From Beijerinckiaceae bacterium (lineage in GTDB: Bacteria > Pseudomonadota > Alphaproteobacteria > Rhizobiales > Beijerinckiaceae): a stretch of 64,000 nt of DNA. The DNA lies in the NCBI GenBank assembly GCA_947454485.1, contig CANGJJ010000008.1, forward strand, positions 62,001 to 126,000, read 5' to 3'. Below, piece after piece: positions 8,713 to 23,397 of the stretch. Under the pieces are notes generated by a model. It searched no databases and was not told the origin of the DNA. It saw nothing but the letters and a program-made list of their open reading frames with translations. The translations under genes were made by a program, and so were the position numbers. Positions within the stretch are counted from its first letter, which is position 1; each line of letters opens with the position of its first letter.

Positions 8713-11559
8713 ATGGGCCTCATTCAAGAACGAGACTTCGGAACAGCTTTGGCGCGCAGTGATGTTGCGGTCACGCTGACCATTGATGGTACGCATGTTG
8801 TCGTGCCGCAGGGGACATCGGTGATGGCCGCTGCCATGACGATGGGCACACAAATCCCCAAACTCTGCGCCACCGATATGCTGGACGCCTTCGGCTCTTG
8901 TCGACTGTGTCTTGTGGAGATTGAGGGGCGACGCGGTACTCCTGCCTCCTGCACGACGCCTGTTGAAGAGGGCATGGTCGTGCATACGCAAAATGCGCGG
9001 TTGGCGAAGCTGCGCAAGGGTGTGATGGAGCTTTATATCTCCGATCACCCGCTCGATTGTCTGACCTGCTCTGCCAATGGCGATTGCGAATTGCAGGATA
9101 TGGCCGGCGCAGTTGGCCTGCGCGATATGCGCTACGGCCAGAGCGGGGCCAATCATCTTGATGCGCCGCGTGACGACAGCAATCCCTATTTCTCTTTTGA
9201 TCCAACAAAATGCATTGTCTGCTCGCGCTGCGTGCGCGCTTGCGATGAAGTGCAGGGTACTTTTGCGCTGACGATTGATGGGCGCGGTTTTGCCTCGAAA
9301 GTTGCGACCGGCACGCAAGATTTCCTCTCCTCCGAATGCGTGTCTTGCGGCGCCTGTGTGCAGGCCTGCCCAACCGCGACGCTCATGGAAAAGAGCGTGA
9401 TTGAGATGGGACAGCCAGAACATTCTGTCCTAACGACTTGCGCCTATTGCGGCGTGGGCTGTTCCTTTAAAGCAGAGATGCAGGGCGAGCGTTTGGTGCG
9501 TATGGTGCCTTTCAAAGATGGTAAGGCCAATGAAGGTCATTCCTGCATCAAGGGTCGCTTCGCCTATGGTTATGCGACGTCGTCTGATCGCATCACAAAG
9601 CCGATGATCCGCGACAAGATCTCCGATCCGTGGCACGAAGTGTCATGGGATGAGGCTTTTGGGTTTGCCGCCAAACGATTCAACTTTATTCAAGACAAAT
9701 ATGGTCGCGAGTCGATTGGGGCGATTACATCTTCTCGCTGTGCCAATGAAGAAGTCTTCATCATGCAAAAGCTGGTGCGCGCTGGCTTTGGCAATAACAA
9801 TGTCGACACTTGTGCGCGCGTCTGCCATTCGCCGACCGGTTATGGATTAAAGACAGCTTTTGGAACATCAGCTGGAACACAGGATTTTAAATCGGTCGCT
9901 TCAGCTGATGTCATTTTGCTGATCGGCGCCAATCCGACAGATGCCCATCCCGTCTTTGCCTCGCGCATGAAGCGCCGTTTGCGCAAGGGCGCGAAGCTGA
10001 TTGTCATCGACCCGCGCCAGGTTGATCTTGTGCGCTCGCCTCATATTGAGGCGGCCTATCATCTGCCGTTGTTGCCGGGAACCAATGTGGCGATTATCAA
10101 TGCGCTCTCGCATGTGATTGTCAGTGAGGGCCTCATTGATGAGGACTTTGTGCGCGAGCGTTGCGACAGTTCTGATTTCGCCGCTTGGGCGCAATTCATC
10201 CTGCGCGCGGAGAATTCGCCGGAGGCGGTAGCCAAGGTGAGCGGTGTTGCCGCTGAACATATTCGCGCTGCGGCGCGTCTTTATGCCAAGGGCGGCAATA
10301 GCGCAATCTATTATGGGCTGGGCGTGACCGAACATTCGCAAGGTTCGACCATGGTCATGGGCATGGCGAATTTGGCGATGGCTTGCGGCATGATTGGGCG
10401 TGACGGTGTTGGCGTCAATCCGCTGCGTGGCCAAAACAATGTGCAGGGCGCCTGCGATATGGGATCCTTCCCGCATGAATTCTCCGGCTATCGTCATGTG
10501 TCGGATGATGCGACGCGCGATATGTTTGAGAACTTGTGGGGTGTGACGCTGGATCGCGAGCCGGGCCTGCGCATTCCCAATATGATTGATGAGGCGGTAA
10601 ATGGTCGTTTCAAAGGGCTCTATGTGCAAGGTGAGGATATTGCGCAATCTGATCCAGATACACAGCATGTCACGCGCGGGCTTGAAGCGATGGACTGCGT
10701 GATTGTGCAGGATCTGTTTTTGAACGAGACAGCTAAATATGCGCATGTTTTCTTCCCGGGCTCGTCCTTCCTTGAGAAAGATGGCACCTTCACCAATGCA
10801 GAGCGGCGCATCAATCGTGTGCGCAAAGTCATGTCTCCCTTGGCAGGCTTGGCTGATTGGGAAGTGACCTTGGGTTTCGCCAAAGCCTTGGGTGTTGCGA
10901 TGCCCTATGACAATCCTGCGCAGATCATGGATGAGATCGCGCATTTGACGCCCGGCTTTGCAGGCGTCTCTTACGCCTTGCTTGACGAGCTTGGTTCAGT
11001 GCAATGGCCCTGTAACGAGGCTGCGCCTCTTGGCACTCCGATCATGCATATTGATCGCTTCGTGCGGGGCAAAGGCAAATTCATGATCACTGAATATGTA
11101 CCCACCAGTGAGAGAACGGGGCCGAACTTCCCGCTTTTGCTGACAACGGGGCGCATTCTCAGTCAATATAATGTGGGCGCCCAAACGCGGCGCACGCAAA
11201 ACTCGATCTGGCATGAGCAAGATTTGCTCGAGATTCACCCTTATGATGCTGAGGCGCGTGGGGTCCGGGAGGGCGATCTTGTGGGAATGACCAGCCGCGC
11301 TGGTGAAGTCTCGCTGCGCGCGCATGTGACAGAGCGTGTCCAGCCGGGGGTTGTGTATACGACTTTCCATCATCCCGGCACGGGTGCGAATGTGGTGACA
11401 ACGGATAATTCGGATTGGGCGACCAATTGTCCCGAATATAAAGTGACGGCCGTGCAGGTGCGCCGCGTCAATCATCTGTCGCAATGGCAAGCGCATGATC
11501 GCGAATTGTCGGTTGCCTTGCGCAAGATCAGCCATGAGGGCGCCGATGCTGCCGAATGA
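8713..11559 (+). CDS. fdsA: NAD-dependent formate dehydrogenase alpha (catalytic) subunit
   Basis: This is the formate-oxidising subunit (948 residues). The N-terminus is NuoG-like: a [2Fe-2S] domain (FGSCRLC), a His-Cys cluster site (DHPLDCLTCSANGDC) and two [4Fe-4S] sets (CIVCSRCVRAC and CVSCGACVQAC). The bis-MGD enzyme follows with its own [4Fe-4S] site (CAYCGVGC). The active-site Cys-His pair is Cys371-His372 in ARVCHSPTG, so the metal ligand is cysteine, not selenocysteine. Whether molybdenum or tungsten is used cannot be read from sequence. The architecture matches oxygen-tolerant Fds enzymes such as those of Rhodobacter and Cupriavidus. Confidence 0.96.
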   Translation: MGLIQERDFGTALARSDVAVTLTIDGTHVVVPQGTSVMAAAMTMGTQIPKLCATDMLDAFGSCRLCLVEIEGRRGTPASCTTPVEEGMVVHTQNARLAKLRKGVMELYISDHPLDCLTCSANGDCELQDMAGAVGLRDMRYGQSGANHLDAPRDDSNPYFSFDPTKCIVCSRCVRACDEVQGTFALTIDGRGFASKVATGTQDFLSSECVSCGACVQACPTATLMEKSVIEMGQPEHSVLTTCAYCGVGCSFKAEMQGERLVRMVPFKDGKANEGHSCIKGRFAYGYATSSDRITKPMIRDKISDPWHEVSWDEAFGFAAKRFNFIQDKYGRESIGAITSSRCANEEVFIMQKLVRAGFGNNNVDTCARVCHSPTGYGLKTAFGTSAGTQDFKSVASADVILLIGANPTDAHPVFASRMKRRLRKGAKLIVIDPRQVDLVRSPHIEAAYHLPLLPGTNVAIINALSHVIVSEGLIDEDFVRERCDSSDFAAWAQFILRAENSPEAVAKVSGVAAEHIRAAARLYAKGGNSAIYYGLGVTEHSQGSTMVMGMANLAMACGMIGRDGVGVNPLRGQNNVQGACDMGSFPHEFSGYRHVSDDATRDMFENLWGVTLDREPGLRIPNMIDEAVNGRFKGLYVQGEDIAQSDPDTQHVTRGLEAMDCVIVQDLFLNETAKYAHVFFPGSSFLEKDGTFTNAERRINRVRKVMSPLAGLADWEVTLGFAKALGVAMPYDNPAQIMDEIAHLTPGFAGVSYALLDELGSVQWPCNEAAPLGTPIMHIDRFVRGKGKFMITEYVPTSERTGPNFPLLLTTGRILSQYNVGAQTRRTQNSIWHEQDLLEIHPYDAEARGVREGDLVGMTSRAGEVSLRAHVTERVQPGVVYTTFHHPGTGANVVTTDNSDWATNCPEYKVTAVQVRRVNHLSQWQAHDRELSVALRKISHEGADAAE

Positions 11560-12388
11560 TCTTGAAAGCGCCTATGTGAGTGAGCCAGTGCAGCGTCTCA
11601 CCTTTGCGGGTGCGACCCTTGCTGTGTCACGCGACTGCGCTGTGGAAGCACCGGTCAATATTATTTATGCGCCCGTCTCTCACGCGGTGATGATGGCCTC
11701 ACCGCGCGACTTGGAAGATTTTGCGCTTGGCTTCAGCCTGACAGAGGGCGTGATTGAGTCCGCTGATGACATTCGTTCGATTGAGATTGAAGCTCTGGAG
11801 GAGGGAATCAAGCTCATCGTATCTCTGGCGGGTGACAAGATGCAGCGTCATCTTGCGCGCAAGCGACAGATGGCAGGACGGACCAGCTGCGGTGTCTGCG
11901 GCATTGATGATCTCTCAGCCTTGGCTGTGAAGACAGGTGGTCCGCGTGAGCCGGGCCAATTGCGGCTCTCTGTCGTGCAAAGAGCACTGGAGGCCTTGCC
12001 GCCGTTACAAGTGCTCAATACGCATACGCATAGTGTTCACGCAGCTGGCTTTGCCAATGAAGAGGGCGAGATTGTTCTGCTGCGCGAAGATGTCGGGCGA
12101 CATAATGCACTCGATAAATTGATCGGAGCTTTGGTACGCGCAAAGATGGATCCCGCGCGCGGTTTCGTGGTTCTGACGAGTCGCTGCTCTTATGAGATGG
12201 CCGAGAAGGTCGCCGTGCTAGGTGCGCGCGCTGTTGTGTGTATCTCTGCACCAACCCATTTGGCTGTGCAGCGGGCCAAGGCCTATGGCGTAACATTGGT
12301 GGCTATGGCGCGCGGGGACGGGGTAAGTGTCTATACTTATCCTGAATGCGTGACCAATGATCTGCAGGCAGCGGAGATGCGCGCATGA
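11546..12388 (+). CDS. fdhD: Formate dehydrogenase accessory sulfurtransferase FdhD (FdsC)
   Basis: FdhD moves sulfur from a cysteine desulfurase to the bis-MGD cofactor, a step required for active formate dehydrogenase, and may protect the cofactor before insertion. The essential CGVC motif lies at Cys115-Cys118 (TSCGVCG). I chose the ATG at 11546, which overlaps the fdsA stop and has GAGGG a few bases upstream; in-frame ATGs at 11534 and 11495 lie deeper inside fdsA. The product is about 280 residues. The stop overlaps fdsD by ATGA. The gene occupies the position called fdsC in other fds operons. Confidence 0.93.
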   Translation: MLPNDLESAYVSEPVQRLTFAGATLAVSRDCAVEAPVNIIYAPVSHAVMMASPRDLEDFALGFSLTEGVIESADDIRSIEIEALEEGIKLIVSLAGDKMQRHLARKRQMAGRTSCGVCGIDDLSALAVKTGGPREPGQLRLSVVQRALEALPPLQVLNTHTHSVHAAGFANEEGEIVLLREDVGRHNALDKLIGALVRAKMDPARGFVVLTSRCSYEMAEKVAVLGARAVVCISAPTHLAVQRAKAYGVTLVAMARGDGVSVYTYPECVTNDLQAAEMRA

Positions 12389-12609
12389 CCTCATCCACCG
12401 ACAAGCTGGTGCGCATGGTCAATGACATTGCTCATTTCTTTCGGGCGCAGGGGCAGGCGCAAGCGGCTCAAGGCGTCGCTGATCATTTGCGCGCATTTTG
12501 GACCGTGCAAATGCGCCGCGATCTTCTCGACCATCTGCGCCACGGTGGGCAGGGGCTTGAGCCGATCGCTTTGGCTGCTGCCCAGAAATTGATGGCGGAG
12601 CAGATTTAG
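12385..12609 (+). CDS. fdsD: NAD-dependent formate dehydrogenase delta subunit
   Basis: This 74-residue protein closes the fds operon. It has the typical FdsD pattern: an N-terminal VRMVNDIAHFF helix, a central FWTVQMRRDLLDH segment and a C-terminal PIALAAAQKL helix. FdsD is a small subunit of the complex and has been linked to assembly or stability. Its reading frame overlaps fdhD by four bases. It ends only 12 bases from the stop of the convergent exported-protein operon, with no room for an independent terminator. Confidence 0.9.
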   Translation: MTSSTDKLVRMVNDIAHFFRAQGQAQAAQGVADHLRAFWTVQMRRDLLDHLRHGGQGLEPIALAAAQKLMAEQI

Positions 12610-12621
12610 CCGCGTGATGGC

Positions 12622-13833
12622 TTAGTCAAAGGCCTTGGAGCGCGTGCCCGGATTTGGTGGCGGGGCGCTTGGTTTTGCTTCAGTCTCGATGCGACGCAGG
12701 ATCAGATTGTCGGATTTCTTCGGTGTGCCGGAAACAAGCTTCGCTGAAGAGACATTTTGCGATACGCGCGTAATCTCGACCATTCCAATTTCATTTTCGC
12801 GACGCCCCAAAGATTCTTTTGTATCGGGGTCCATCATCTCAGCGCCCAGTTCGACCAGGCGATAGCGTTCACCTGCGGCGAGAGACTGACCGCCTTGATT
12901 GATCGTGAGATTGGCGGGATCATCGCTCGTGACCACACGCAGGGGGAATAGGGTTTCGGACACTTGTGCACCGATGGTGCGCGCAGCAGCCTCAAAGCCA
13001 TTATCGAGCGATGCGAGCTTGATAATATTTGACCATTGAATCTGGCGTGTCGCGATCTCAATCAATGAGACGGTGATCTCTGCGCTGATACGCTCTCGGG
13101 TACTGCGTTCCATGGATATGGGGTTGAGAACTTCTTCGCGCCGTTTGGTCGTCGTGACTTTGCCAACGAGGATAAAATCGGCGCCCAAGACCTGACCGAA
13201 GCGCACACGCTCGCTCATATTGGCAGCGGCACTGGTGACGAGTGCCATTTCAGAGGCATATTGCGCAGTCTCAGTTCGGTCGAGAACCGAGAACCGACGC
13301 GCTTGGACAAAATAGACTTTCAAGCGATCTTGGAGTTGCGCCGCGCTTTCAGGCGCCAGTCCCTGGAAGGCTGAGACAATAATACGAATACGATTGGCAG
13401 TTTCAGGCATTACGGATCGGAATTTCTCGACATCCACTTTCAAACGCACTGTCGTATAGCCGCGACTATCTGCAGAGGATGACAGGACTGTGTATGTCTT
13501 CACCGCGCCGCCGCTTTGGGATGCAACCATATCCATCCCTTCTGAGACTTTCGCTGTGCCGCTCATATCGAGGCCAATGGTAGACAAGGGCCCCGAACGA
13601 TTGGCATTGGCGTCAACCTGCAAGACGCGTTGGTTGAGCCCGGTGACAGCTGCTTGGTCGATGCGCACACCCGTGACACGCTGAACTGCTTCAACCAGCC
13701 CCTGCGTGATCGCCTCAGCGCGGCTGCGCCCCACACCTGTTGCCTCTGTTGCCACGACTTCAGCTCGGGCTGTGCTGTAGAAGATCAAGGAGAGCGCAAG
13801 CAAGTTTGCCAGAAGCGTTGTGGCTTTTTTCAT
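12622..13833 (-). CDS. Exported CsgG-like protein with FlgT-like N- and C-terminal modules
   Basis: This is the last gene of a six-gene operon of exported proteins (403 residues). A Sec signal peptide (MKKATTLLANLLALSL... ending ARA) has no lipobox cysteine. Residues ~25-140 hold a module with GVGRSRAEAI and GAVKTYTVL. The middle carries a CsgG/TolB-like core (RFSVLDRTE, then LGADFILVGKV). The C-terminus (~335-395) has a module containing DPDTKESLGRRENEIGMV. This N-core-C order recalls FlgT, the Vibrio flagellar H-ring protein, but no flagellar gene is nearby. I chose the ATG at 13833 because it starts the signal peptide. The function is unknown; a periplasmic or outer-membrane ring or adaptor role is inference. 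Confidence 0.75.
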   Translation of the reverse strand: MKKATTLLANLLALSLIFYSTARAEVVATEATGVGRSRAEAITQGLVEAVQRVTGVRIDQAAVTGLNQRVLQVDANANRSGPLSTIGLDMSGTAKVSEGMDMVASQSGGAVKTYTVLSSSADSRGYTTVRLKVDVEKFRSVMPETANRIRIIVSAFQGLAPESAAQLQDRLKVYFVQARRFSVLDRTETAQYASEMALVTSAAANMSERVRFGQVLGADFILVGKVTTTKRREEVLNPISMERSTRERISAEITVSLIEIATRQIQWSNIIKLASLDNGFEAAARTIGAQVSETLFPLRVVTSDDPANLTINQGGQSLAAGERYRLVELGAEMMDPDTKESLGRRENEIGMVEITRVSQNVSSAKLVSGTPKKSDNLILRRIETEAKPSAPPPNPGTRSKAFD

Positions 13834-13855
13834 CTCACGCTCTCCCTGTTTTGGC

Positions 13856-14566
13856 TTAGAGTTTGCTGATTGCGTCTGCGGACGCTTTGGGATCAGTCTT
13901 CTTGGCAAGTGCTGCCTTCTCCCCATTGGAGAGTTTTGGCACATTGTTTTCCCGCATATAGCCATTCATCGCTTCGTTGAACTTTTTTGAGTTCTCCGTT
14001 TGCGTGGGGATGGCGGTCAGAGCAAATTGCGCGGCTTCCAGAATGGCAGGTGCACCAACAATATCCTGCGGGCCGGGCTTTTGCGTAATCATCATGCCTG
14101 CTGATGCAAGGGCAAGGCCGTTGTAGAGAATGACAACATCCATATGGCCCTGCGCTTGAGCGACTTTCTTTTTGCCTTCCGCATCATTCACGCGCGCGAG
14201 GCCTTCACGATTGATGGGATTTTGCTCAATGACCTTGAGCGTCTTTTCCATCGGATCCTTGCTCGGCGTCTTCATCGACTGGATGGCGGCGGCCTGCGAG
14301 CGAATGGCGGCAGCCTTCTTCTTGTCGCCCATAGCATCTTGCACCAAGGCGATGGCCATCACTTGATTGTAGAGCGCGGTCTTGAGATTGGTTGAGAGTG
14401 CTGCAGCTGCATTAGAGAAGCCGCCGCCACCGCCGCCGCCAAGACCGGGAATGGGGAGGCCGCCTCCGCCGAGGCCAGGCAGACCAAACTGCGCTGAGGC
14501 GGGTGTGATGATCAGGCTTGTTGCGAGCGCCATTGCGCTGAGAATGAACATTCTACGCATAGTCAT
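13856..14566 (-). CDS. Exported protein of unknown function with Gly-rich N-terminus
   Basis: I do not recognise this 236-residue protein. A signal peptide (MTMRRMFILSAMALATSL... cleaved after PASA) is followed by a glycine/proline-rich linker of about 30 residues (GLPGLGGGG repeated). The rest is mainly helical and alanine-rich and ends in lysine-rich segments (KAALAKKTDPKAS). There is no cysteine in the mature part and no membrane segment. It is gene five of the operon, 22-25 bases from both neighbours, between the two CsgG-like genes. An alternative start two codons later (14560) is possible. Confidence 0.75.
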   Translation of the reverse strand: MTMRRMFILSAMALATSLIITPASAQFGLPGLGGGGLPIPGLGGGGGGGFSNAAAALSTNLKTALYNQVMAIALVQDAMGDKKKAAAIRSQAAAIQSMKTPSKDPMEKTLKVIEQNPINREGLARVNDAEGKKKVAQAQGHMDVVILYNGLALASAGMMITQKPGPQDIVGAPAILEAAQFALTAIPTQTENSKKFNEAMNGYMRENNVPKLSNGEKAALAKKTDPKASADAISKL

Positions 14567-14591
14567 TTCCCCCTTCTTCTGTGTTGAGTTC

Positions 14592-15524
14592 TTACTTCAG
14601 GCGAAGGATTGCGCCCGCTTCTGGCATTTGCGCCATGCGGCCGACAGGTTCGCTCACGCTGAACTTTTCTGCGATGCGTCGGATGACAACTTCGCCTATC
14701 AGTGTTTCTTCGCCGCCAAGATCAATGCCGGTTTTGGGATCCTTCATGGACGGGCCGACGGCGTAGACCTCATAGATTTCACCGATCTGGACGCCAGAGC
14801 CTTGGCCTCGATTGATGAAGATGGATTTGCCGTTGGTTTGCACGACCTCGATTGGGTAGATCGCACCAAAAATACTATTACCGACGCGGCGGCCCGCCTC
14901 TGTTGCAAGTAGGGTCCATACTGCGCGCGTTGCAACGCCAGTCCGTTCTGTCACGATTTCGGGCTTCGTGCCGAGTGCTGTGACGACTGAGCCTTGGTAT
15001 TTGATCTGGCCGGATGTCGTGTCGAGCACTTTGACCGAGACATCGAGGGATGCATTGTTCGTTTTGCGGAAGCGGCCGGGAAATTCTTCGATGGGACGAT
15101 AGCTCGGCTCCTGAATGCTCAGGTCGGTGATTGCAATCTGAACAATGAATTCCACATTGCTCAATTTGCCAATGTCAGCCGCATTACCCGCAAAGCGTCG
15201 AATATCGCATTTGATCTTGGCTGTCTCTTCATCCCCGCAAGCCGCGCGATCTTGTTCTTTGATGATCGTTGATTGAAGGACTTTTTGGTCACGCTCAAAA
15301 ATTTTGAAGCGCTTCGAGTTACGCAAGGCCTCTTCTGCACCCAGCACCAGCAGAGTTGGGTCCAGCTGTTCGCGCTTGATGAAGCTATTGACGGCGCTAT
15401 TGCTCGAGGCCTCCATTGGATAGACGGCGACCATTGGCAGCTCTTGCGCCAGAAGGCTGGTGCAGAGCGACGCAGCAAGCAAGAGACCTGCAGGCAAAGA
15501 CGTGAAAGAGAGACGATCTGTCAT
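14592..15524 (-). CDS. Exported CsgG-like protein with shared C-terminal module
   Basis: This 310-residue exported protein has a hydrophobic signal segment (LPAGLLLAASLCTSLLAQ). The cysteine there does not sit in a good lipobox, so it is probably a cleaved soluble protein rather than a lipoprotein. The core resembles CsgG/LpoB/TolB-like periplasmic domains: RFKIFERDQKVLQS near residue 75 and NVEFIVQIAITDL near residue 127. The C-terminal ~80 residues contain DPKTGIDLGGEETLIGEV, clearly related to the same segment in the last gene of the operon. CsgG forms secretion pores and LpoB activates penicillin-binding proteins; neither activity can be assigned. It is gene four of six. Confidence 0.75.
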   Translation of the reverse strand: MTDRLSFTSLPAGLLLAASLCTSLLAQELPMVAVYPMEASSNSAVNSFIKREQLDPTLLVLGAEEALRNSKRFKIFERDQKVLQSTIIKEQDRAACGDEETAKIKCDIRRFAGNAADIGKLSNVEFIVQIAITDLSIQEPSYRPIEEFPGRFRKTNNASLDVSVKVLDTTSGQIKYQGSVVTALGTKPEIVTERTGVATRAVWTLLATEAGRRVGNSIFGAIYPIEVVQTNGKSIFINRGQGSGVQIGEIYEVYAVGPSMKDPKTGIDLGGEETLIGEVVIRRIAEKFSVSEPVGRMAQMPEAGAILRLK

Positions 15525-15535
15525 AATGTCAGTGC

Positions 15536-16150
15536 CTATTTATAGAGGGTGACTGTGGCAGTCATGGCAGCAGGCGTGGGACCTGAGAGGATGACTGTCT
15601 TGTTTCGTTTGGCCTCAATCGCAATTCTCTGCTCATCAATCGCATCGCCAATCATGCGACCGCGCAGATCGGACCATTGTTCGACCATGCGAAGATGGGC
15701 TTGAGCGCCCCCGTTGCTATTGTCGACATCGAATTGGAGATGTGTCTTGCCGCCATCGCGCCATGTTTTGAGGTTGAGGACGCGCGCTGCACAGTAATTG
15801 TTCACGACTTTGATACGAATATTGTCATCACTCACTTCAACAGTTTTCTTGCAGGGCACGGGGGGGCGGATCGGTGCTGCCTGCGGCATGGTTTGTTGAG
15901 GGGGCGGCGCCACATTTCCCATGGGGCCGGCTATTGGCTCTTGCATCGCAGGTGGTGCAGGCGTGGGGGCTGGCGCATAGTTTGGCGGCGCTGCGCGGCG
16001 CCGTTCAGGCGCTCTGTCAGGCGATGTCACAATCACGGTTGTTGATGTGCTTGTGCGCGTGTCGACACGCACATCTTGTGCTTCAGCGGTTAGAGATGAG
16101 GACACAATCAGCAGGGCGAGTGCTGAGGGTATGGCGTTGCGCATGATCAT
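15536..16150 (-). CDS. Exported protein, possibly YcfL-like, with proline-rich linker
   Basis: This is a 204-residue exported protein: a signal peptide ending AEA, a long proline/alanine-rich linker (residues ~45-95), then a compact beta-rich C-terminal domain with two cysteines (VPCKK and NNYCAA) that could form a disulfide. The pattern of a hydrophobic strand, WSDLRGRMI and a final ATVTLYK strand is reminiscent of YcfL, whose gene neighbours lpoB in E. coli. Here the neighbour is also a CsgG/LpoB-fold gene, which supports the comparison, but similarity is by eye only. It is gene three of six. Confidence 0.65.
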   Translation of the reverse strand: MIMRNAIPSALALLIVSSSLTAEAQDVRVDTRTSTSTTVIVTSPDRAPERRRAAPPNYAPAPTPAPPAMQEPIAGPMGNVAPPPQQTMPQAAPIRPPVPCKKTVEVSDDNIRIKVVNNYCAARVLNLKTWRDGGKTHLQFDVDNSNGGAQAHLRMVEQWSDLRGRMIGDAIDEQRIAIEAKRNKTVILSGPTPAAMTATVTLYK

Positions 16151-16155
16151 CTCCC

Positions 16156-17460
16156 TCAGAATGTGATGTTGAATTCATTGTTACCTTTATATTGCGCATC
16201 AAAGGTCTTGTTGGCCTTGAAGGCATCAAAGAGCTTGTCCAGCAAATCTTCTGTATCGAGCTTGGGTGCGCTTGTGGTGAAGTTCAGCGTGACGCGGCTA
16301 TCATTGGACTCAGCTGTGTTCACTTCGGGGACAGCATCGGGTACTGCGCTTTTGATGGCGTTGCGCAGATCAGCGAGCTGACGACGGTCGCGTGTTGTGA
16401 TGCCAACAACGCGCAGGACATATTGCTTTTGTCCCAATTTCGCACGGTCATCTGCAGCTGCATCTGCTTCACGCGAGACCTGGAAGTTCACGACAGCCGC
16501 ACTCGTCTGACGTCCCACTTCTGTGGCAGCGGCATTGGAGAGGCGCTCGCGCAATTCGGTTTGCAGCGCAGCCGAATTGGGTCCGCGCACGGATTGGGTG
16601 ACATTCACGGGTACGGCCGCGACCTGCGTGTCGCCCTTCATATCCAGAAGTTTAAACCGCACGGTCAGAGCGCCCGTCATGCGTTGTTCGCTGTTGTCAT
16701 AATTGAACTGGCTGAATTCAAGCCCATTGATCGCGAGCGAGAAGTCGATGGGAAGATCTTTTTTGTCGGTGCGCGGATCATCTTTGGCCGCCAGCATCTG
16801 GTCGATAGCTTTGTTGGCAGCTGAACCGGTCATAACTTTAAAACCGTTTCCAAGGAAAGCGGAGGTGAGCTTGTCGGCAACATAAGGTGCATCTGGATCG
16901 TTTGTTTCAGCGGTACTCACGACAAAGGTCAGTGTGTTGGACAATGTACGTTCTGTCGACTTCATCATGCGTTGGAAGTCGTTTTTGAGCGCCAGCATTT
17001 TGATCGTGCCATCTGCACGGCAAGAATATTGGGCGACGGGTGTCTTTTTATCATTGGCGGCGATTGGCTTGTTGGCTTTATCAAGCTGGCGGCAATTATG
17101 AGCGGTGTCGGAGGTAAAATAGCGACGACGGAATGTGTTGAAGTCACGGTCCATATCGTCACGGAATTTTTGGCCAATTTCTGCTTCGGCTTGCGCGCCT
17201 GCAAGTTGGCGTAAAACTCGACCCATGCCTGTCGAATAGGCTTCGATGATCGCTTCTTTCTCTGACTTGCCATTGCCAACTGCGTTGAAGGCCACTTCAT
17301 CGAAGGAGATGTCGGCGCCTGCTTGGCCGCTTCCTGAGCGCACAACGGTTTCGACCTGCGTCTCCACACGCGTTTGCACACGGGTTTCGACATTCTGGGC
17401 CTGTGCCATAAGGGGCACGAGGAGGGCGGCGATTGCAATGGGAGTGAGATATGTCTTCAT
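16156..17460 (-). CDS. Exported protein of unknown function, second gene of six-gene operon
   Basis: This 434-residue exported protein has a clear signal peptide (MKTYLTPIAIAALLVPLMAQAQ). After a stretch of alternating V-E-T-R-V residues comes GNGKSEKEAIIEA, which resembles the GVGRSRAEAI segment of the CsgG-like protein encoded by the last gene. Two cysteines (HNCRQ and YSCRAD) could form a disulfide. The C-terminus has two alpha-beta segments (VVGITTRDRRQLADLRNAI and LDTEDLLDKLFDAF) suggesting duplicated ferredoxin-like folds. I do not recognise a family. It lies 11 bases after its upstream neighbour and 5 bases before the next gene. Confidence 0.7.
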   Translation of the reverse strand: MKTYLTPIAIAALLVPLMAQAQNVETRVQTRVETQVETVVRSGSGQAGADISFDEVAFNAVGNGKSEKEAIIEAYSTGMGRVLRQLAGAQAEAEIGQKFRDDMDRDFNTFRRRYFTSDTAHNCRQLDKANKPIAANDKKTPVAQYSCRADGTIKMLALKNDFQRMMKSTERTLSNTLTFVVSTAETNDPDAPYVADKLTSAFLGNGFKVMTGSAANKAIDQMLAAKDDPRTDKKDLPIDFSLAINGLEFSQFNYDNSEQRMTGALTVRFKLLDMKGDTQVAAVPVNVTQSVRGPNSAALQTELRERLSNAAATEVGRQTSAAVVNFQVSREADAAADDRAKLGQKQYVLRVVGITTRDRRQLADLRNAIKSAVPDAVPEVNTAESNDSRVTLNFTTSAPKLDTEDLLDKLFDAFKANKTFDAQYKGNNEFNITF

Positions 17461-17471
17461 GGCCGAGCCTC

Positions 17472-18719
17472 CTAAAATTCTTCTGCTGTTGCTTTAAGGA
17501 GTGGGACGAGCGCTGTTGCTGCCCCGCGTGCTGAATCGCGAATAGCGCCCATGATGACATCTCGTGGAAGACCGCGTTTGAAGTCAGGGCGGTCAATAAA
17601 TGTGCGCGCATTCGTAGAGACCGCAATCTTCTTTGCAGTATCTTTGATCGAGCTTGGCACATGTTCGAGATCTTCGCCTTTACGGCGCACGATCCGCGAT
17701 CCCATTGTGCAATTGATTTGCGACGTGCCAGCGCCCTTGCTGCGCTCGACCTTGATTAAGCCTGCGCGAATTTCAAAGCCGTTCATTTGTGTTGAATCAG
17801 GTTGCGCGAGGATTTGGGCCTGAACACCGAGGCGCTGTTGCAAGACACGCAGGATGCGGCCTTCAGTCCATGGGCTTTCGGGAGGCAAGATCGCGACATT
17901 GGCGACTTTTGCGCGATCAAGCGCGTCCAAAATCATGAGGCTATAGATATGCTGGATTTCGCGGCTGAGCTTCGTCATCTCGCGCTGGCGTGCATCGGGG
18001 CTTTTGTCAGCGGCTGCATCTACGCCGCTTGTAATCAGCCCGTCTATGTCGATCGGCAATGGTGATGGCATCACCATGTTTTTCACCTGAAAGACCGCAC
18101 TCGCGCGCTCGCGCTTGTCGCGTAGATATTTGGCTGTGCGATCCAGCAGCTCTTCAACAGCCGCGAAGAACACGCTTTGATAGTGCCGCGCGATCTCAGC
18201 GTCGCTGGGACGATTGCGCCCATGAATGACCTGATTGACGACAATCATCGTGCTGTAGAGGGACTCAAACCGGTTTTGATTCCTGAACGCTGCCTTGTCT
18301 GTCATGACATCAACAGCAGCCGAGACACTGATAGTGGTCAGAAACTCATTCGGGAGGCCAGGCGAGGTGATGGTGATAATGTCATGCTGCGCGCGTGTGA
18401 CGGACAATGCGATGGGATTGCCTTCATCTTTGTCGTTCAGGCCAACGATGCGGGCAAAATCTTTTTTGGTGTCGACGATGGCCCGAACGCGGCGCGATAG
18501 TTCTGCTCCGTTCTTTTCAGCGGACTGATCGTCTCGAAGTGGATTGATGAGGTTGCGAAAGAGCGTACTCGTGTCGGAGACAGCGGTATCGTAATAGCAG
18601 CCCGCGAAGAAATGGGTTTGAGCCTCTTGCGCGCGTATAATTTGAGGGCAAGCGAGGGCTGCGGCAGTCGTTGCGGCAGAAATAAGCAGATCTCGACGAT
18701 GCATAGTGACTGCTTTCAT
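17472..18719 (-). CDS. Exported protein of unknown function with twin-arginine-type signal, first gene of operon
   Basis: This 415-residue protein leads the six-gene operon. Its N-terminus carries MHRRDLLISAATTAAALA, a twin-arginine-style signal; the consensus SRRxFLK is only partly met, so Tat export is likely but not certain. The ATG at 18719 is used here; the one at 18704 would start directly at MHRRD. The mature part is alpha/beta with no metal or cofactor motif I recognise. One segment, RAKVANVAILPPESPWTEGRILRVLQQRL, suggests a LolB/TolB-like or nucleotide-fold element, but that is a guess. The upstream AT-rich region holds a palindrome that may control it. Confidence 0.7.
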   Translation of the reverse strand: MKAVTMHRRDLLISAATTAAALACPQIIRAQEAQTHFFAGCYYDTAVSDTSTLFRNLINPLRDDQSAEKNGAELSRRVRAIVDTKKDFARIVGLNDKDEGNPIALSVTRAQHDIITITSPGLPNEFLTTISVSAAVDVMTDKAAFRNQNRFESLYSTMIVVNQVIHGRNRPSDAEIARHYQSVFFAAVEELLDRTAKYLRDKRERASAVFQVKNMVMPSPLPIDIDGLITSGVDAAADKSPDARQREMTKLSREIQHIYSLMILDALDRAKVANVAILPPESPWTEGRILRVLQQRLGVQAQILAQPDSTQMNGFEIRAGLIKVERSKGAGTSQINCTMGSRIVRRKGEDLEHVPSSIKDTAKKIAVSTNARTFIDRPDFKRGLPRDVIMGAIRDSARGAATALVPLLKATAEEF

Positions 18720-18740
18720 TCGAGCAGATGATTAATGAAA

Positions 18741-18758
18741 GATCACTTTTATGTGATC
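18741..18758. promoter_or_regulatory. Palindrome GATCAC-N6-GTGATC, candidate operator
   Basis: A perfect 6-base inverted repeat with a six-base spacer lies 22 bases upstream of the first gene of the six-gene operon, a position where a bound repressor would block transcription. A further half-site-like GTGAT occurs at 18768-18772. The divergently encoded XRE-type protein is the obvious candidate binder; this is inference. Confidence 0.4.
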
Positions 18759-19165
18759 ATTGGGATAGTGATTATCTATTCATCAAAAAGGATGTTTTTG
18801 TTGTCTTAAAAAAGAGGATTGCAACAATTTTATCATTGATTTGGCTTCGATGACTTCTTCAAGCACTTGAGTTTCGGTTGAAGAGAATGTGAGAGGCCTT
18901 AAGCGAGTTAGTGATGGCAAAATCGCTCAAAGAGATTTTGGCGCGCATTCTTGAGGCGCGAGTCTGCGTGGTTTCGCATATCGGATGTGCTTTTAGCTTG
19001 TATGGTCGGCGTTGTTTTGTGCCAGCGCCAGCCCATCGTTGACATCATTGGTTGCTTGTCGCTCGTCATATCGGGTCGCAAGATGGCAGTCAGCGTCAGC
19101 TGACTTTGTTGGATCTTGTGATCGGCTTTATTCAACTCGGGCGCCATTACCTATTTTGGGTACAC

Positions 19166-19171
19166 TATAAT
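19166..19171 (+). promoter_or_regulatory. Candidate -10 element (TATAAT) of the XRE regulator gene
   Basis: A perfect TATAAT lies 50 bases before the chosen ATG at 19222. No good -35 hexamer is seen at 16-18 bases upstream, so an activator or an atypical promoter is possible. Confidence 0.4.
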
Positions 19172-19221
19172 TTAATCCTGTTTTTTTTGACACTCAGTTG
19201 AGCGCTTTGTATAAACGCGCA

Positions 19222-19875
19222 ATGTCAAATGCCGACACCGATCTTGCTGTGCACTCGGCTCGGGCTTCTCGTCTGAAGGCCGCGAGGATCGACGCCGGTT
19301 TTCGCACTGCCAGAGAGGCGGCTGAGCGGCTTCAAATTCCCTATCCCACTTATGCAGGCCATGAGAATGGCAGCCGTGGGATCAAGGATGGTGAGCTGCT
19401 TTTATATTCGGAAGCCTTCAAAACATCTGTGACTTGGATTGCATTCGGGATTCAGGCGACTGTGAATAAGGCTTTGTTGCCTTCGGTCGCATTTTTTGAC
19501 ACCATCAAACCGATGGATGATCTTGCGAATGGACTTGAAGGTTTCATCGAGGTTGAGGCGCCGTTCCCAATCCCGAGTGGTGTGTCTGTCGTGCGGATTC
19601 CGGACGACCATCTGTCTCCCACTTACTTTAAGAATGAACTGCTTCTCATCCAGTCAGCCGGTACTTTGTCTGGCTGCATCGCAAAGCGCTGCCTCATCAT
19701 TCTAGAAAAGCAGAATAGTGCCGGACCCGAGCGGGTTTCAGTTGCTGGCACAATCTTGCGCGTTACGACTGCAGGGCAGGGTGATGTGCAGGAGATTACG
19801 GGGCGCGTTCATTTTGAGGCGCGTATTTTATGGGCGGCCGAAGTCGTCGGCATCGTCGCCAATCAAGCTGCCTGA
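19222..19875 (+). CDS. XRE-type helix-turn-helix, phage-repressor-like regulator
   Basis: This 217-residue putative DNA-binding protein has an N-terminal HTH domain (residues ~15-75) with the sequence RLKAARIDAGFRTAREAAERLQ followed by YPTYAGHENGSR, the classic XRE recognition-helix region. The C-terminal ~120 residues are beta-rich and resemble the S24-like dimerisation part of phage-type repressors, but I cannot identify a Ser-Lys autocleavage dyad. I prefer the ATG at 19222; a TTG at 19198 would add eight residues. It is divergent from the six-gene exported-protein operon and upstream of the autotransporter, so it may control either. The translation shown is split here only for description. 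Confidence 0.75.
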   Translation: MSNADTDLAVHSARASRLKAARIDAGFRTAREAAERLQIPYPTYAGHENGSRGIKDGELLLYSEAFKTSVTWIAFGIQATVNKALLPSVAFFDTIKPMDDLANGLEGFIEVEAPFPIPSGVSVVRIPDDHLSPTYFKNELLLIQSAGTLSGCIAKRCLIILEKQNSAGPERVSVAGTILRVTTAGQGDVQEITGRVHFEARILWAAEVVGIVANQAA

Positions 19876-20376
19876 CAAGGTCCGTCTGTCAGAGCATTGA
19901 TAGAAGCCCGCGCGTTTCTGCGGCTTGTGATCCTCTTTATATATCGCATCCAGCGGGACTTTATGGTCGTCCGCTGTGTTCGACTGACCATCTTGGCTGG
20001 GCCGTGCGGCGGCATTTGACCGAGCGGGCAAGGTTCTACCTGCTCTTTGAGTGACGCGGCACCGGAAGTTGTCTCCTCTTGGCGCGGCTAAGACGACTCA
20101 CGGGCAATCAGGCAGGCGCCAACTCCATCTGCCGATCGACAGAGGTGCCGGCAAAACAGGTGACGCACCCCCGTCCAAGCCTCCCGCGTTTATGCTTTAT
20201 GAGTATCTTCGCGGAGAGATTCGCCCGAATTTCAGGTTAATTTTTACACAAAAAGCGTAAATTACTTTGAATGAAATGCTTTTTGCATAAAACTTACAAA
20301 AGGGCTGTTACGGGTCGTGGCGAGGTACCCGCTTCTTCTTAGCGGGTTCGCGAAACCGTTTCGAAAGTGCCCGTCT
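19876..20376. other. Intergenic region upstream of the autotransporter
   Basis: About 500 bases without a convincing gene. Bases 20235-20300 are strikingly A/T-rich and probably contain the autotransporter promoter, but I see no -35/-10 pair with good spacing. A minus-strand frame overlapping 19828-20031 is open for 67 codons and reads like protein in places (VPLDAIYKEDHKPQKRAGF), but has no recognisable family or ribosome binding site. Confidence 0.5.
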
Positions 20377-23300
20377 ATGACCCTTCAGGTTCCGAACACA
20401 AACGCTCTTCTTGTTGCGGCCAATGAGCGCCGCGCGGATGCTGCCAATATTGCGCGTCTGTCGAAGTGCTCTGTCTCGATGATTGCTTTGGCGGCGGGGT
20501 TGATTGTAGTCGCCGGTGCAACGCAAGTTCGCGCGCAGACTTCGATCACCACCGACCAGACAGGCATTGCGGGTACGGCTGGCAGTGTGATTGGTGACTC
20601 TGGAACCGCTGGCGGCGTTGGTAGCACGGGTGGTTTTGGCGGTAGCGGCGGCAATGGCGGCGCGGGTGGTAATGGCGGTAATGCGGGTGTGACCGGCGCG
20701 TCCGGCAATACGGGTACGGCTGGTATGTCCGGCACGTCCGGCACCAGCGGCGGTACCGCTGCGGGCAATACGGCTGCTGCTAACCCTGGTTTTGCTGGCT
20801 CTTCGGGAACTACAGGCGCTGCGCCTACCGGCCAAAGCGGTTCAACTGCTGGCGCTGGTGGTGCTGGTGGTGCTGGTGGCTCTGGTACGAGCGGCACACG
20901 CGGCCCTAGTGGCGTGACTGGTGCGACTGCGGGCAGCCCTGGCGGCATTGGTGGCACAGGCTATACGGGCCCGACGGCTGGTGGCCTTCTCATTGGGCCT
21001 AGCGCGACCATTCGCGGCGGCATCGGTGGCACGGGTGCTACCGGCGGCACGGGCGGCACGGGCGGCACCGGTGGTGCTGGCGGTGCTGGTGGCGCTGGCG
21101 GCAATGGCGGTGCTGGCGGCAATGGTGGCAACGGCTTTACAGGCTCGACTGGTAACACAGGCTCTGGTGGCGCTGGTGGCGCTGGTGGGGCGGGCGGTGC
21201 TGGCGGCGCTGGTGGCGCTGGCGGAACCGGTGGCACGGGTGGCCGCGGCGCGGCAGGCGGCAGCGGCGGTGCTGGTGGCGCTGGTATCTATAATGCTTCG
21301 ACCCTGACCATTTGGAACTTCGGTTCGGTCATCGGCGGCACGGGCGGCGCTGGTGGCGCTACAGGCGCGGCTGGAGCAGCTGGTGCAGCAGGTGCAACCG
21401 GGACAACCGGTGCGGCCGGATCTGCCGGCGCGACCGGCAATGCTGGTTCTGGTAACATCACTGATGGCAGCACAGGTGGTGCGCCGGGCGCTGGTGGCGC
21501 AGCTGGTGCAGGCGGTGCCGGTGGTGCAGGCGGCGCTGGTGGCGCTGGCGGTTCTGGTGGTACGGCTGGTCTGCAAGGCAATGGCGGCGCAGGCATTCAG
21601 TCTGCTGGTGGTACGCTGACCCTGACCAACTATGGCACGGGCGTCATTGCTGGCGGCATCGGCTATGCAGGCGGCGCTGGTGTTTTGGTCACGGGCGGTA
21701 CTGCATCGATCACCAATAGTGGAACGATCGACGGCGGCGAGGGTAATTTAGGTGCGGGCGGCGCTGGTATCGTGGCCTCTGGCCTGTCGCTCAACCTGAC
21801 AAACGAGCTCTTTGGTATCATCACCGGTGGCACAGGCGCTGTAACGGCTTCGGGTTCTTCCGGCGTTCTCGTGACTTCGGGCACAGCAAGCATCAACAAC
21901 AACGGTATCATTCAGGGTGGTTCGGGCGGTTCGACTGGCCTTGCAACTGGTGGTGATGCGATCCATGTGTCGGGCGGCGTTGCTTCGATCACCAACTTCG
22001 GCGCGCTGATCGGTGGTGCGTCGGGTGGTACGGGCCTCGATGGCTATGGCATCAATGTGACGGGTAGCGGCTCAGTCTCACATCTGACGAACTCGCAGGG
22101 CGGTTCAACTGCTGGCCCCGGCGTGTCGCCCACGATGGTTGGTCTGACCTATAGTGGCGCCTTGCCGACCAACTATAATATGGTGATCAATAGCGACACT
22201 TATTATGGTCAGCTCTTCGTCACCAATGGTACCGGCAACATGACCTTCGGTGTCACGCAGGTGAACCCGGGTAGCTCCAATCTGCCGGCTGGCGATCCCC
22301 TGACACGCATCAGATATCATGAGGTGGTGACGGGCGTGACTGCGGCGCAATATAACAACACGCCGAATGCGGCCGGCTGGTGGGGCACCTATGCCAACAC
22401 CCAGTGGCGGTTGGAGCAGCACGACCCCAATAATTGGGATCTGGTGTTGATCTTCAGCCCCGATCTGCAAAACACCACATCTGCCATGCTGCGCAATGGT
22501 GGTGCACTTGCCAACACATTGGATCGTCGTTCAACCGCATTGGCTTTCATGGCCAATTATGATTGCCCGACCTTCGACAAGAATGGCCTGTGCATCTCCT
22601 TCCAGGCGCGCTACAGCAGCTTCCAGTCGGACAATGAGGGTGCTGGTGTTCTCACCGCCGCCTATCGTCTGGGTGATGCGCTTCGCATCGGCGGCTTTAT
22701 TGACTATAGCGGTCAAGACAAGAGCGCCAATGGCCTGAAGTTCTCTGAGGCGTCGCCGACCTTCGGTGCCTTCATTGGTTATGATCAGCGCGTCAATGGC
22801 ACTGGCCTGAAGGGCAAGGTCATTGCAGCTGCCCATAACGATAAGGTCACTGTCACGCGTGATCTGATGACCTTTACGGAAGCTGGTTCGGGCCGCGCCT
22901 CCATCAACTCCTATATGGTTGCTGGTGAACTGGGTTGGGGCTTTGCGCTGGGTGGCGGCATGGTGGCCACGCCTTATGCTGGCATTCGTTACACGGATGT
23001 GTCGCGTAAGGGTTACTCAGAAACGCCGGTGGCCTATTCGGTTGAGTTCCCGATCACCTATAACGACTTCTATCGTCGCATGACGACGATGACCGGTGGT
23101 CTGCGTCTCGCGGGCAAGTTGGGTGACAAGGCTGGTTACCAGATCGGTGCTGGTGTCGAACAAGATGTGAGCGCTCAGAACAGCCTCTATTCTGGTACGT
23201 CCAACATCTTCGGTCTTGGGTCCTTCGGCTTTGCCACCACCACGACCATCAACAAGACCCGTGGTGTTGGTTCGGTCAGCTTGTTCTACCAGTTTGACAA

Positions 23301-23397
23301 GAACCAGCGTGTGCTGGGCTCGGTCAATGTGCGTAGCCAGGCCAATTCGAATGACACAGCTGTGACCGCAATCGGCGGCTACCAGCTCTCCTTCTAA
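20377..23397 (+). CDS. Glycine-rich autotransporter (type Va-like) outer-membrane protein
   Basis: This large surface protein has about 1006 residues. A long N-terminal signal (CSVSMIALAAGLIVVAG... ending VRAQ) with an extended charged region is typical of autotransporters. The passenger first runs through ~370 residues of glycine-rich repeats (GGAGGAGGAGG, GGTGGTGG). It then has beta-helix repeats of the type VLVTGGTASITNSGTI, and finally a ~280-residue C-terminal beta-barrel (from about LANTLDRRSTALAFM) ending in the expected aromatic residue (YQLSF). The barrel should insert in the outer membrane and display the passenger. The ATG at 20377 is preferred; a GTG at 20317 would add 20 residues. 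The binding target is unknown. Confidence 0.85.
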   Translation: MTLQVPNTNALLVAANERRADAANIARLSKCSVSMIALAAGLIVVAGATQVRAQTSITTDQTGIAGTAGSVIGDSGTAGGVGSTGGFGGSGGNGGAGGNGGNAGVTGASGNTGTAGMSGTSGTSGGTAAGNTAAANPGFAGSSGTTGAAPTGQSGSTAGAGGAGGAGGSGTSGTRGPSGVTGATAGSPGGIGGTGYTGPTAGGLLIGPSATIRGGIGGTGATGGTGGTGGTGGAGGAGGAGGNGGAGGNGGNGFTGSTGNTGSGGAGGAGGAGGAGGAGGAGGTGGTGGRGAAGGSGGAGGAGIYNASTLTIWNFGSVIGGTGGAGGATGAAGAAGAAGATGTTGAAGSAGATGNAGSGNITDGSTGGAPGAGGAAGAGGAGGAGGAGGAGGSGGTAGLQGNGGAGIQSAGGTLTLTNYGTGVIAGGIGYAGGAGVLVTGGTASITNSGTIDGGEGNLGAGGAGIVASGLSLNLTNELFGIITGGTGAVTASGSSGVLVTSGTASINNNGIIQGGSGGSTGLATGGDAIHVSGGVASITNFGALIGGASGGTGLDGYGINVTGSGSVSHLTNSQGGSTAGPGVSPTMVGLTYSGALPTNYNMVINSDTYYGQLFVTNGTGNMTFGVTQVNPGSSNLPAGDPLTRIRYHEVVTGVTAAQYNNTPNAAGWWGTYANTQWRLEQHDPNNWDLVLIFSPDLQNTTSAMLRNGGALANTLDRRSTALAFMANYDCPTFDKNGLCISFQARYSSFQSDNEGAGVLTAAYRLGDALRIGGFIDYSGQDKSANGLKFSEASPTFGAFIGYDQRVNGTGLKGKVIAAAHNDKVTVTRDLMTFTEAGSGRASINSYMVAGELGWGFALGGGMVATPYAGIRYTDVSRKGYSETPVAYSVEFPITYNDFYRRMTTMTGGLRLAGKLGDKAGYQIGAGVEQDVSAQNSLYSGTSNIFGLGSFGFATTTTINKTRGVGSVSLFYQFDKNQRVLGSVNVRSQANSNDTAVTAIGGYQLSF
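20560..21580 (+). repeat. GC-rich triplet/hexamer repeat tract inside the autotransporter gene
   Basis: This stretch is built largely of GGTGGCGCT-, GGCGGCAAT- and GGCGGCACG-like units encoding Gly-Gly-Ala, Gly-Gly-Asn and Gly-Gly-Thr triplets, with the densest runs near 21050-21130, 21160-21280 and 21500-21560. In-frame gain or loss of units by slippage or recombination would change passenger length without breaking the frame. On the opposite strand it creates long spurious proline-alanine frames. Confidence 0.8.

What the first reader, a model, noticed from the sequence alone, without database searches (positions are those of the whole stretch)
12622..18719. Six-gene operon of exported proteins with two FlgT/CsgG-like members: candidate undescribed envelope system
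Six minus-strand genes separated by 5-25 bases all encode signal-bearing proteins. The fourth and sixth share a C-terminal module visible by alignment (DPKTGIDLGGEETLIGEV against DPDTKESLGRRENEIGMV) plus a CsgG-like core (RFKIFERD/RFSVLDRT and FIVQI/FILVGKV). The sixth and second also share a GxGxSxxEAI segment. The set therefore looks like a multi-part periplasmic or outer-membrane assembly, similar in fold to FlgT/CsgG/LpoB but with no flagellar or curli genes around it. Neither CsgG-like member has a lipobox, unlike CsgG and LpoB.
Basis: partly seen in the sequence, partly recalled or inferred. Interest (0 to 1): 0.75.

Follow-up and report, generated by a model that had tools for sequence, protein, structure and literature searches.

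The report
Non-flagellar FlgT-like envelope gene cluster
Six neighbouring genes make exported proteins, one of them built like the ring protein FlgT of some flagella, and they look like one version of a widespread, apparently undescribed cell-envelope system that does not depend on flagella.

Summary
In detail: six minus-strand genes (A to F), 5-25 bases apart, encode exported proteins. F is a three-domain FlgT-like protein: its AlphaFold2 model hits FlgT over its length (Foldseek 8e-15, 1.3e-14), and its family profile aligns full length with true FlgT (98.8%). It is not flagellar FlgT: true FlgT forms another clade, sits elsewhere in 5 genomes that also hold an F relative, and 10 of 44 genomes with F relatives lack flagellar rod genes, one of them carrying all six genes. 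D is F without its first domain; B has the same core fold; C resembles YcfL; E has relatives beside F elsewhere; A is unassigned. The order is the same in 4 other Rhizobiales/Beijerinckiaceae MAGs. Across phyla F relatives recur in two layouts: TPR-YcfL-LpoB-DUF6844-F and A-like-B-like-E-like-F-DUF6844; the window looks like a mixture. Most likely a periplasmic or outer-membrane-associated ring or scaffold; that mechanism is inferred. Ten searches of held papers found no description.

The parts
17472..18719 (-). gene A, 415 aa, exported with a twin-arginine-type signal; unassigned, weakly like the A-like family (f7/f15/f42) found upstream of B-like genes elsewhere
   Evidence: orthologues in 4 of 80 loci; hhalign to the merged A-like profile 48%, E 1.8e-4, collinear 1-198 to 9-204, but 0.3% when limited to residues 16-150 and 0.7% or less to the single A-like families
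16156..17460 (-). gene B, 434 aa, exported; N-terminal SHS2-like region, LptE/CsgG/TolB-type middle domain, C-terminal extension
16999..17298 (-). B, N-terminal SHS2-like region (about residues 55-154)
   Evidence: strand-helix(es)-strand-strand in the model; my reading of the secondary structure
16483..16929 (-). B, LptE/CsgG-type middle domain
15536..16150 (-). gene C, 204 aa, exported, C-terminal part YcfL (DUF1425)-like
   Evidence: orthologue in L015 hits DUF1425 at 1.1e-4, 22.4 bits, under the cut-off 28.3; hhalign with the YcfL family 46%; YcfL-family profile hits the orthologues in L122 (=L015) and L123 (=L014) at 8e-5 and 6e-4; window C itself has no DUF1425 hit
14592..15524 (-). gene D, 310 aa, exported; F without its N-terminal domain
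   Evidence: hhalign D with the wider F family 99.9%, 34-313 to 148-394, E 5e-33; CsgG 7e-4, FlgT_M 0.011, both under cut-off
14643..14897 (-). D, C-terminal module shared with F and with LysM-domain/TsaP proteins
   Evidence: BLASTP 1e-9 to F; hmmsearch 6ve2_O 2.1e-5, 3jc8_Ta 4.6e-5
13856..14566 (-). gene E, 236 aa, exported, Gly-rich then helix-prone; relatives sit near F in other phyla
   Evidence: iterated profile hits in distant loci; hhalign to family f8 94%
12622..13833 (-). gene F, 403 aa, exported three-domain FlgT-like protein
13423..13764 (-). F domain 1, SHS2/LPP20/FlgT_N-like, with a 55-residue insert between the helix and the second strand
   Evidence: AF2 model, low confidence in the insert; 37-84 residues there in the 72 aligned sequences
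12943..13401 (-). F domain 2, TolB_N/CsgG/LpoB/FlgT_M-like
12685..12942 (-). F domain 3, beta-barrel, FlgT_C/TsaP-like

Best explanation
The six genes form one operon for an exported, flagellum-independent envelope complex whose core is a FlgT-like protein. F is a three-domain FlgT homologue (shown: fold, and family profile). D (domains 2 and 3 only) and B (an SHS2-like region and the core domain plus an extension) are further subunits of the same fold class (D by profile, B by model with weak profile support). By analogy with FlgT, which makes the H ring around the flagellar basal body, F most likely oligomerises into a ring or collar at the periplasmic face of the outer membrane, with D and B as extra layers and C (YcfL-like), E and A as accessory factors (inferred). 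In other bacteria the same F family is encoded with predicted lipoproteins (TPR protein, YcfL, LpoB family) and a DUF6844 protein, so the system probably links the outer membrane to the peptidoglycan layer or to a structure crossing it (inferred).
Against: No experiment. Window F's own close family against true FlgT gave only 1.6%: the link runs through the wider family. Window F has no FlgT Pfam hit, and its genome no FlgT_C match at E <= 0.1. The insert is modelled with low confidence. Foldseek TM-scores to FlgT are low, 0.23-0.26. The best fold match of B is LptE-type, not FlgT. A and C are weakly assigned. 34 of 44 genomes with F relatives do have a rod-protein match.
Confidence: 0.58

Rival explanations
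1. The operon is a flagellar accessory (an H-ring-like part) encoded away from the flagellar genes.
For: F is FlgT-like; the window's genome has flagellar rod genes, the listed ones on contig C9; 34 of 44 genomes with F relatives have a rod-protein match.
Against: No rod-protein match in 10 of 44 genomes with F relatives, including one with all six genes, and in G001; 5 gammaproteobacterial genomes hold a separate true FlgT besides their F relative.
Confidence: 0.08
2. The operon makes an outer-membrane secretion channel in the manner of CsgG: F or D oligomers form a pore for a substrate such as the Gly-rich E protein.
For: CsgG-type core fold in F and B and CsgG profile match in D; CsgG Pfam hits in 53 of 72 F sequences; E is exported and Gly-rich; PelC, a ring protein of an export system (recalled), is a fold hit.
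Against: No lipobox in the window's F or D; F and D carry an extra C-terminal barrel and F an N-terminal domain; none of the 6 window neighbours scanned is a curli or Pel gene; the curli substrate was not searched for genome-wide.
Confidence: 0.14
3. It is a peptidoglycan-synthesis regulator in the manner of YcfL/LpoB: C and D correspond to the YcfL-LpoB pair and act on a penicillin-binding protein.
For: C is YcfL-like and is followed by the CsgG-fold gene D; LpoB in 43 and YcfL in 30 of 80 loci with F relatives; F is over the LpoB Pfam cut-off.
Against: NCBI's LpoB equivalog model scores F 13.5 against a cut-off of 110.55; the LpoB family of the clusters matches D at 2.5% and F at 1.4%; window B-F have no lipobox.
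Confidence: 0.15
4. The genes are unrelated exported proteins that happen to be adjacent.
For: A, C and E have no clear common family with B, D and F.
Against: Same order and strand in the 4 other loci that hold A; short gaps; B-like, E-like and F genes recur together in other phyla.
Confidence: 0.03

Closest known systems
FlgT (H-ring protein of Vibrio-type flagella)
   Same: three-domain architecture and fold; exported; profile match over the whole length through the F family
   Different: separate clade on a long branch; window F not over any FlgT Pfam cut-off; present in genomes without rod proteins
YcfL-LpoB pair of E. coli (ycfL-lpoB, pairing recalled)
   Same: YcfL-like C followed by a CsgG/LpoB-fold gene; YcfL and LpoB family genes recur with F relatives
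   Different: no lipobox in C, D or F of the window; extra domains in D and F; LpoB equivalog cut-off not met by F
CsgG / PelC / LptE / TolB_N fold proteins
   Same: core domain fold of F and B by model, of D by profile
   Different: additional domains, no lipobox, different gene neighbours
TsaP and LysM-domain relatives (solved structures 3jc8, 6ve2)
   Same: C-terminal module of D and F
   Different: no LysM hit in D or F

Membership tests
FlgT | three domains N, M, C in the FlgT fold | tested here: met
   F model, Foldseek 8z5n and 3w1e first, 415-421 columns; a domain-wise rather than rigid match
FlgT | over the curated FlgT Pfam cut-offs | tested here: not met
   window F has no FlgT hit; no FlgT_C match in its genome at E <= 0.1
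FlgT | groups with flagellar FlgT in a tree | tested here: not met
   5 FlgT rows form their own clade, 100/99, branch 4.62; window F lies in another starred clade of 6, 100/100. Long branches: how the clades join is unsure
FlgT | found with flagella | tested here: not met
   no rod-protein match in 10 of 44 genomes with F relatives (completeness not told there) nor in G001, 100% complete
CsgG | over the CsgG Pfam cut-off | tested here: not met
   D 19.4 bits against 20.8; window F no hit
CsgG | outer-membrane lipoprotein (lipobox) | tested here: not met
   no lipobox in window D or F
CsgG | membrane-spanning beta-hairpins forming a channel | not testable with these tools
   no oligomer prediction available
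LpoB | over the LpoB Pfam cut-off | tested here: met
   F 32.1 bits against 22.3
LpoB | NCBI LpoB equivalog model TIGR02722 | tested here: not met
   F 13.5 against 110.55
LpoB | lipoprotein | tested here: not met
   window F has no lipobox
LpoB | activates PBP1B | not testable with these tools
   needs biochemistry
YcfL (DUF1425) | over the DUF1425 cut-off (gene C) | tested here: not met
   window C no hit; L015 orthologue 22.4 bits against 28.3
YcfL (DUF1425) | profile-level similarity of the conserved domain | tested here: inconclusive
   hhalign 46%, E 2e-4, over the DUF1425 part
TsaP | LysM domain plus the C-terminal module | tested here: not met
   module matched; no LysM hit in D or F

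The most novel reading that the evidence does not exclude
A cross-phylum, flagellum-independent ring or collar system of the outer membrane, built on FlgT-like subunits and encoded with YcfL, LpoB-family and TPR lipoproteins and DUF6844 proteins, is the wider family from which the flagellar H-ring protein FlgT was recruited; the window carries a version with no evident lipoprotein that mixes its two main layouts.
Probability: 0.33. Interest if true: 0.8.

Novelty: new variant of a known kind. Interest (0 to 1): 0.6.

Why it matters
If right, FlgT is one specialised member of a much wider envelope-ring family, YcfL and part of the LpoB family gain a shared system, and the origin of the extra flagellar rings becomes testable in bacteria without flagella. 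The gene sets and loci listed here allow direct knock-out and structure work.

Tried and rejected
Rejected: flagellar accessory (genomes without rod genes); simple CsgG or LpoB membership (cut-offs or lipobox not met). Comparison of A with the single A-like families gave 0.7, 0.5 and 0.1%; only the merged profile gave 48%, and the same limited to residues 16-150 gave 0.3%, hardly above seven control families (0.1-0.3%). A3 against A4 gave 18%. The close F family against true FlgT gave 1.6%, B against FlgT 0.2%. E against f13 gave 0.8% and f14 31%, so the E-like2 label rests on f8-f13 (86%) and f13-f14 (98%). A CsgG search of the own genome found one match, on another contig (C1), not D or F, at E <= 1e-3. 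Rfam search of 12000-20300: 0 matches at the gathering scores. Promoter- and terminator-like sites were not above shuffles (2 against 3.6; 5 against 8.8).

Literature: ten searches of the held open-licence papers. Six returned 0 papers: FlgT+LpoB+CsgG, FlgT+TsaP+peptidoglycan (31), DUF6844 (52), COG3014 or COG3417 (55), TsaP+FlgT domain (58), FlgT-like (72). Four returned papers: LpoB+YcfL 5 (32), FlgT+non-flagellar+homolog 3 (53), FlgT+LPP20 3 (54), two of DUF1425/LPP20/CsgG/DUF4810/DUF799 1 (73). Of these 12 listed papers I saw passages of two (PMC12222027; PMC7693769) and only the listing of the rest, so a mention in an unread one is not excluded. Subscription papers are mostly not held.

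Limits of the counts: one search counts same-strand genes within 8 kb with overlapping ORFs dropped, so C in L012 and L013 (seen) is missing there, and A-like genes on the other strand in L044, L070, L072 are left out. The family profiles were built from these same loci. The 80 loci are the best 80 of 221 confirmed. For one search I picked 44 of the 80 loci by hand, for 24 genomes (19 of the 80 loci and 5 of the genus). Order, family and class searches drew samples; the tables show at most 6 or 4 candidates scored a genome. A type I secretion/adhesin link (L117, L123, Alteromonas loci) was seen but not tested.

Full report
WHAT IS THERE. Six minus-strand genes, A (18719-17472), B (17460-16156), C (16150-15536), D (15524-14592), E (14566-13856) and F (13833-12622), follow each other with 5-25 bases between them. 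Window B-F have type I export signals and no lipobox by a simple heuristic. The heuristic returned nothing for window A; its sequence shows a twin-arginine-type signal, with RR in all five A sequences. D and F share a C-terminal module (BLASTP E 1e-9 for one comparison). Pfam gives LpoB for F (1.2e-7, over the cut-off), CsgG for D (7e-4, just under the cut-off), and nothing solid for A, B, C or E.

CONSERVATION. All six genes occur in the same order and strand in L012, L013, L014 and L015, records titled uncultured Rhizobiales (3) and Beijerinckiaceae (1). The distribution is patchy: a match to D in 6 of 61 relatives including own, one of them (G012) only to the F C-module; F in 2 of 297 genomes of the order including own, the other at 8.7e-4 over 80 positions; B in 10 of 298 of the family including own, 5 of them strong; and an F-profile match in 38 of 387 genomes of the class including own, many over part of the length only. 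The genes beside the operon differ between the window, L012, L013, L014 and L015 as far as they were read; L012 and the cut locus L017 share a flank.

THE WIDER FAMILY. The scan for F relatives confirmed 221 places; the best 80 were kept. In these 80 loci, same strand and within 8 kb: DUF6844 in 50, a TPR protein in 43, LpoB family in 43, YcfL in 30, B-like in 25, E-like in 17, E-like2 in 10, A-like in 17; 5 loci show F alone. Two layouts dominate: TPR-YcfL-LpoB-DUF6844-F (14 loci exactly, others lacking one or two genes) and A-like-B-like-E-like-F-DUF6844 (5 loci exactly, others with changed order or members). In the clusters most TPR (30 of 41), YcfL (20 of 26) and LpoB (24 of 35) proteins match a lipobox pattern, while F proteins do not (57 of 60 type I, 3 lipobox). 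The window looks like the second layout with a YcfL-like/CsgG-fold pair (C-D) set inside it; this reading rests on weak A and B assignments.

NOT FLAGELLAR. The window's genome has rod-protein matches, 7 in all, the listed ones on contig C9. Of 44 genomes with F relatives that I chose, 34 have a rod-protein match and 10 do not, among them records titled Chlorobium, Opitutales, Alcaligenaceae and Verrucomicrobia; completeness is not told for genomes reached this way. The genome of L012, which has all six genes, is one of the 10; by contig number and length it is G433, 100% complete. G001 (100% complete, no rod match) has B', a DUF6844-like protein, F and D in one cluster. Five genomes carry a separate true FlgT over the cut-off besides their F relative. 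In a 75-row tree the five FlgT form one clade (100/99) on a branch of 4.62; window F and its five sampled close homologues form another (100/100; I labelled these six 'six_gene' in the script, but did not check the operon around all of them). How the clades join is unsure because of long branches.

HOW IT MAY WORK. FlgT makes the H ring of Vibrio-type motors (PMC7693769, passages). A study of the Campylobacter motor says the SHS2 fold is shared by FlgP, Lpp20 and FlgT and that ring formation goes with an insert between the SHS2 helix and the second strand (PMC12222027, passages). F has 55 residues there, and the 72 aligned sequences 37-84. I infer a ring or collar at the periplasmic face of the outer membrane with F, D and B as layers and C, E and A as accessories. 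Oligomerisation, location and partners are untested. The main rivals are a CsgG-like channel and a YcfL/LpoB-like regulator of peptidoglycan synthesis.

NOVELTY. Ten searches of the held open-licence papers found no description of these clusters and no paper with DUF6844 or 'FlgT-like'; 10 of the 12 papers listed were seen only as listings, and subscription papers are mostly not held. I file it as a new variant of a known kind: FlgT-type proteins in a non-flagellar setting.

Noticed in passing
L095/L120 9971-12082 (-), L116 1749-3731 (+), L117 9743-11905 (-): In three family genomes a longer B-like gene is followed directly by a caspase-domain protein (Peptidase_C14 2.5e-16, 4.5e-20, 1.5e-18) in which the SGHG and DxC motifs (recalled as catalytic) are replaced in 3 of 3: a likely inactive caspase fold.
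   Followed up: partly
L123 512-6895 (+), also cut in L014: A 2127-aa DUF4347/ALTTAQ-repeat protein lies directly upstream of gene A, looking like a giant surface protein.
   Followed up: partly
L117 14140-18000 (-): A 995-aa repeat protein and, by eye, an HlyD-like secretion protein lie upstream of the B-like gene; ABC-transporter-like genes of secretion type, by eye, also lie near F in Alteromonas loci L021 and L023.
   Followed up: no
L001 (own genome, C1:62865-63395): The only CsgG-family match in the own genome at E <= 1e-3 (1.5e-5, over cut-off, 517-aa frame) lies on another contig.
   Followed up: no
window 20317-23397 (+): 1026-aa Gly-rich repeat protein with an autotransporter-like C-terminus by eye, divergent from the operon; no Pfam hit at E <= 0.01.
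   Followed up: no
window 19198-19875 (+): Divergent HTH_3 protein (3.2e-4, under cut-off) beside the operon's upstream end; possible regulator; not seen beside A in L121 or L123, where the upstream side could be read.
   Followed up: partly
L044 6389-7753 (-), L070 6276-7655 (-), L072 6246-7673 (-): A-like proteins with twin-arginine signals (by eye) lie on the opposite strand inside otherwise same-strand clusters.
   Followed up: no
L085, L089, L090: Three verrucomicrobial-type loci have two adjacent F-family genes upstream of TPR-YcfL-LpoB.
   Followed up: no
window 8713-12609 (+): Molybdopterin oxidoreductase (formate dehydrogenase type), FdhD and FdsD, ordinary, next to the operon's 3' end.
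   Followed up: yes
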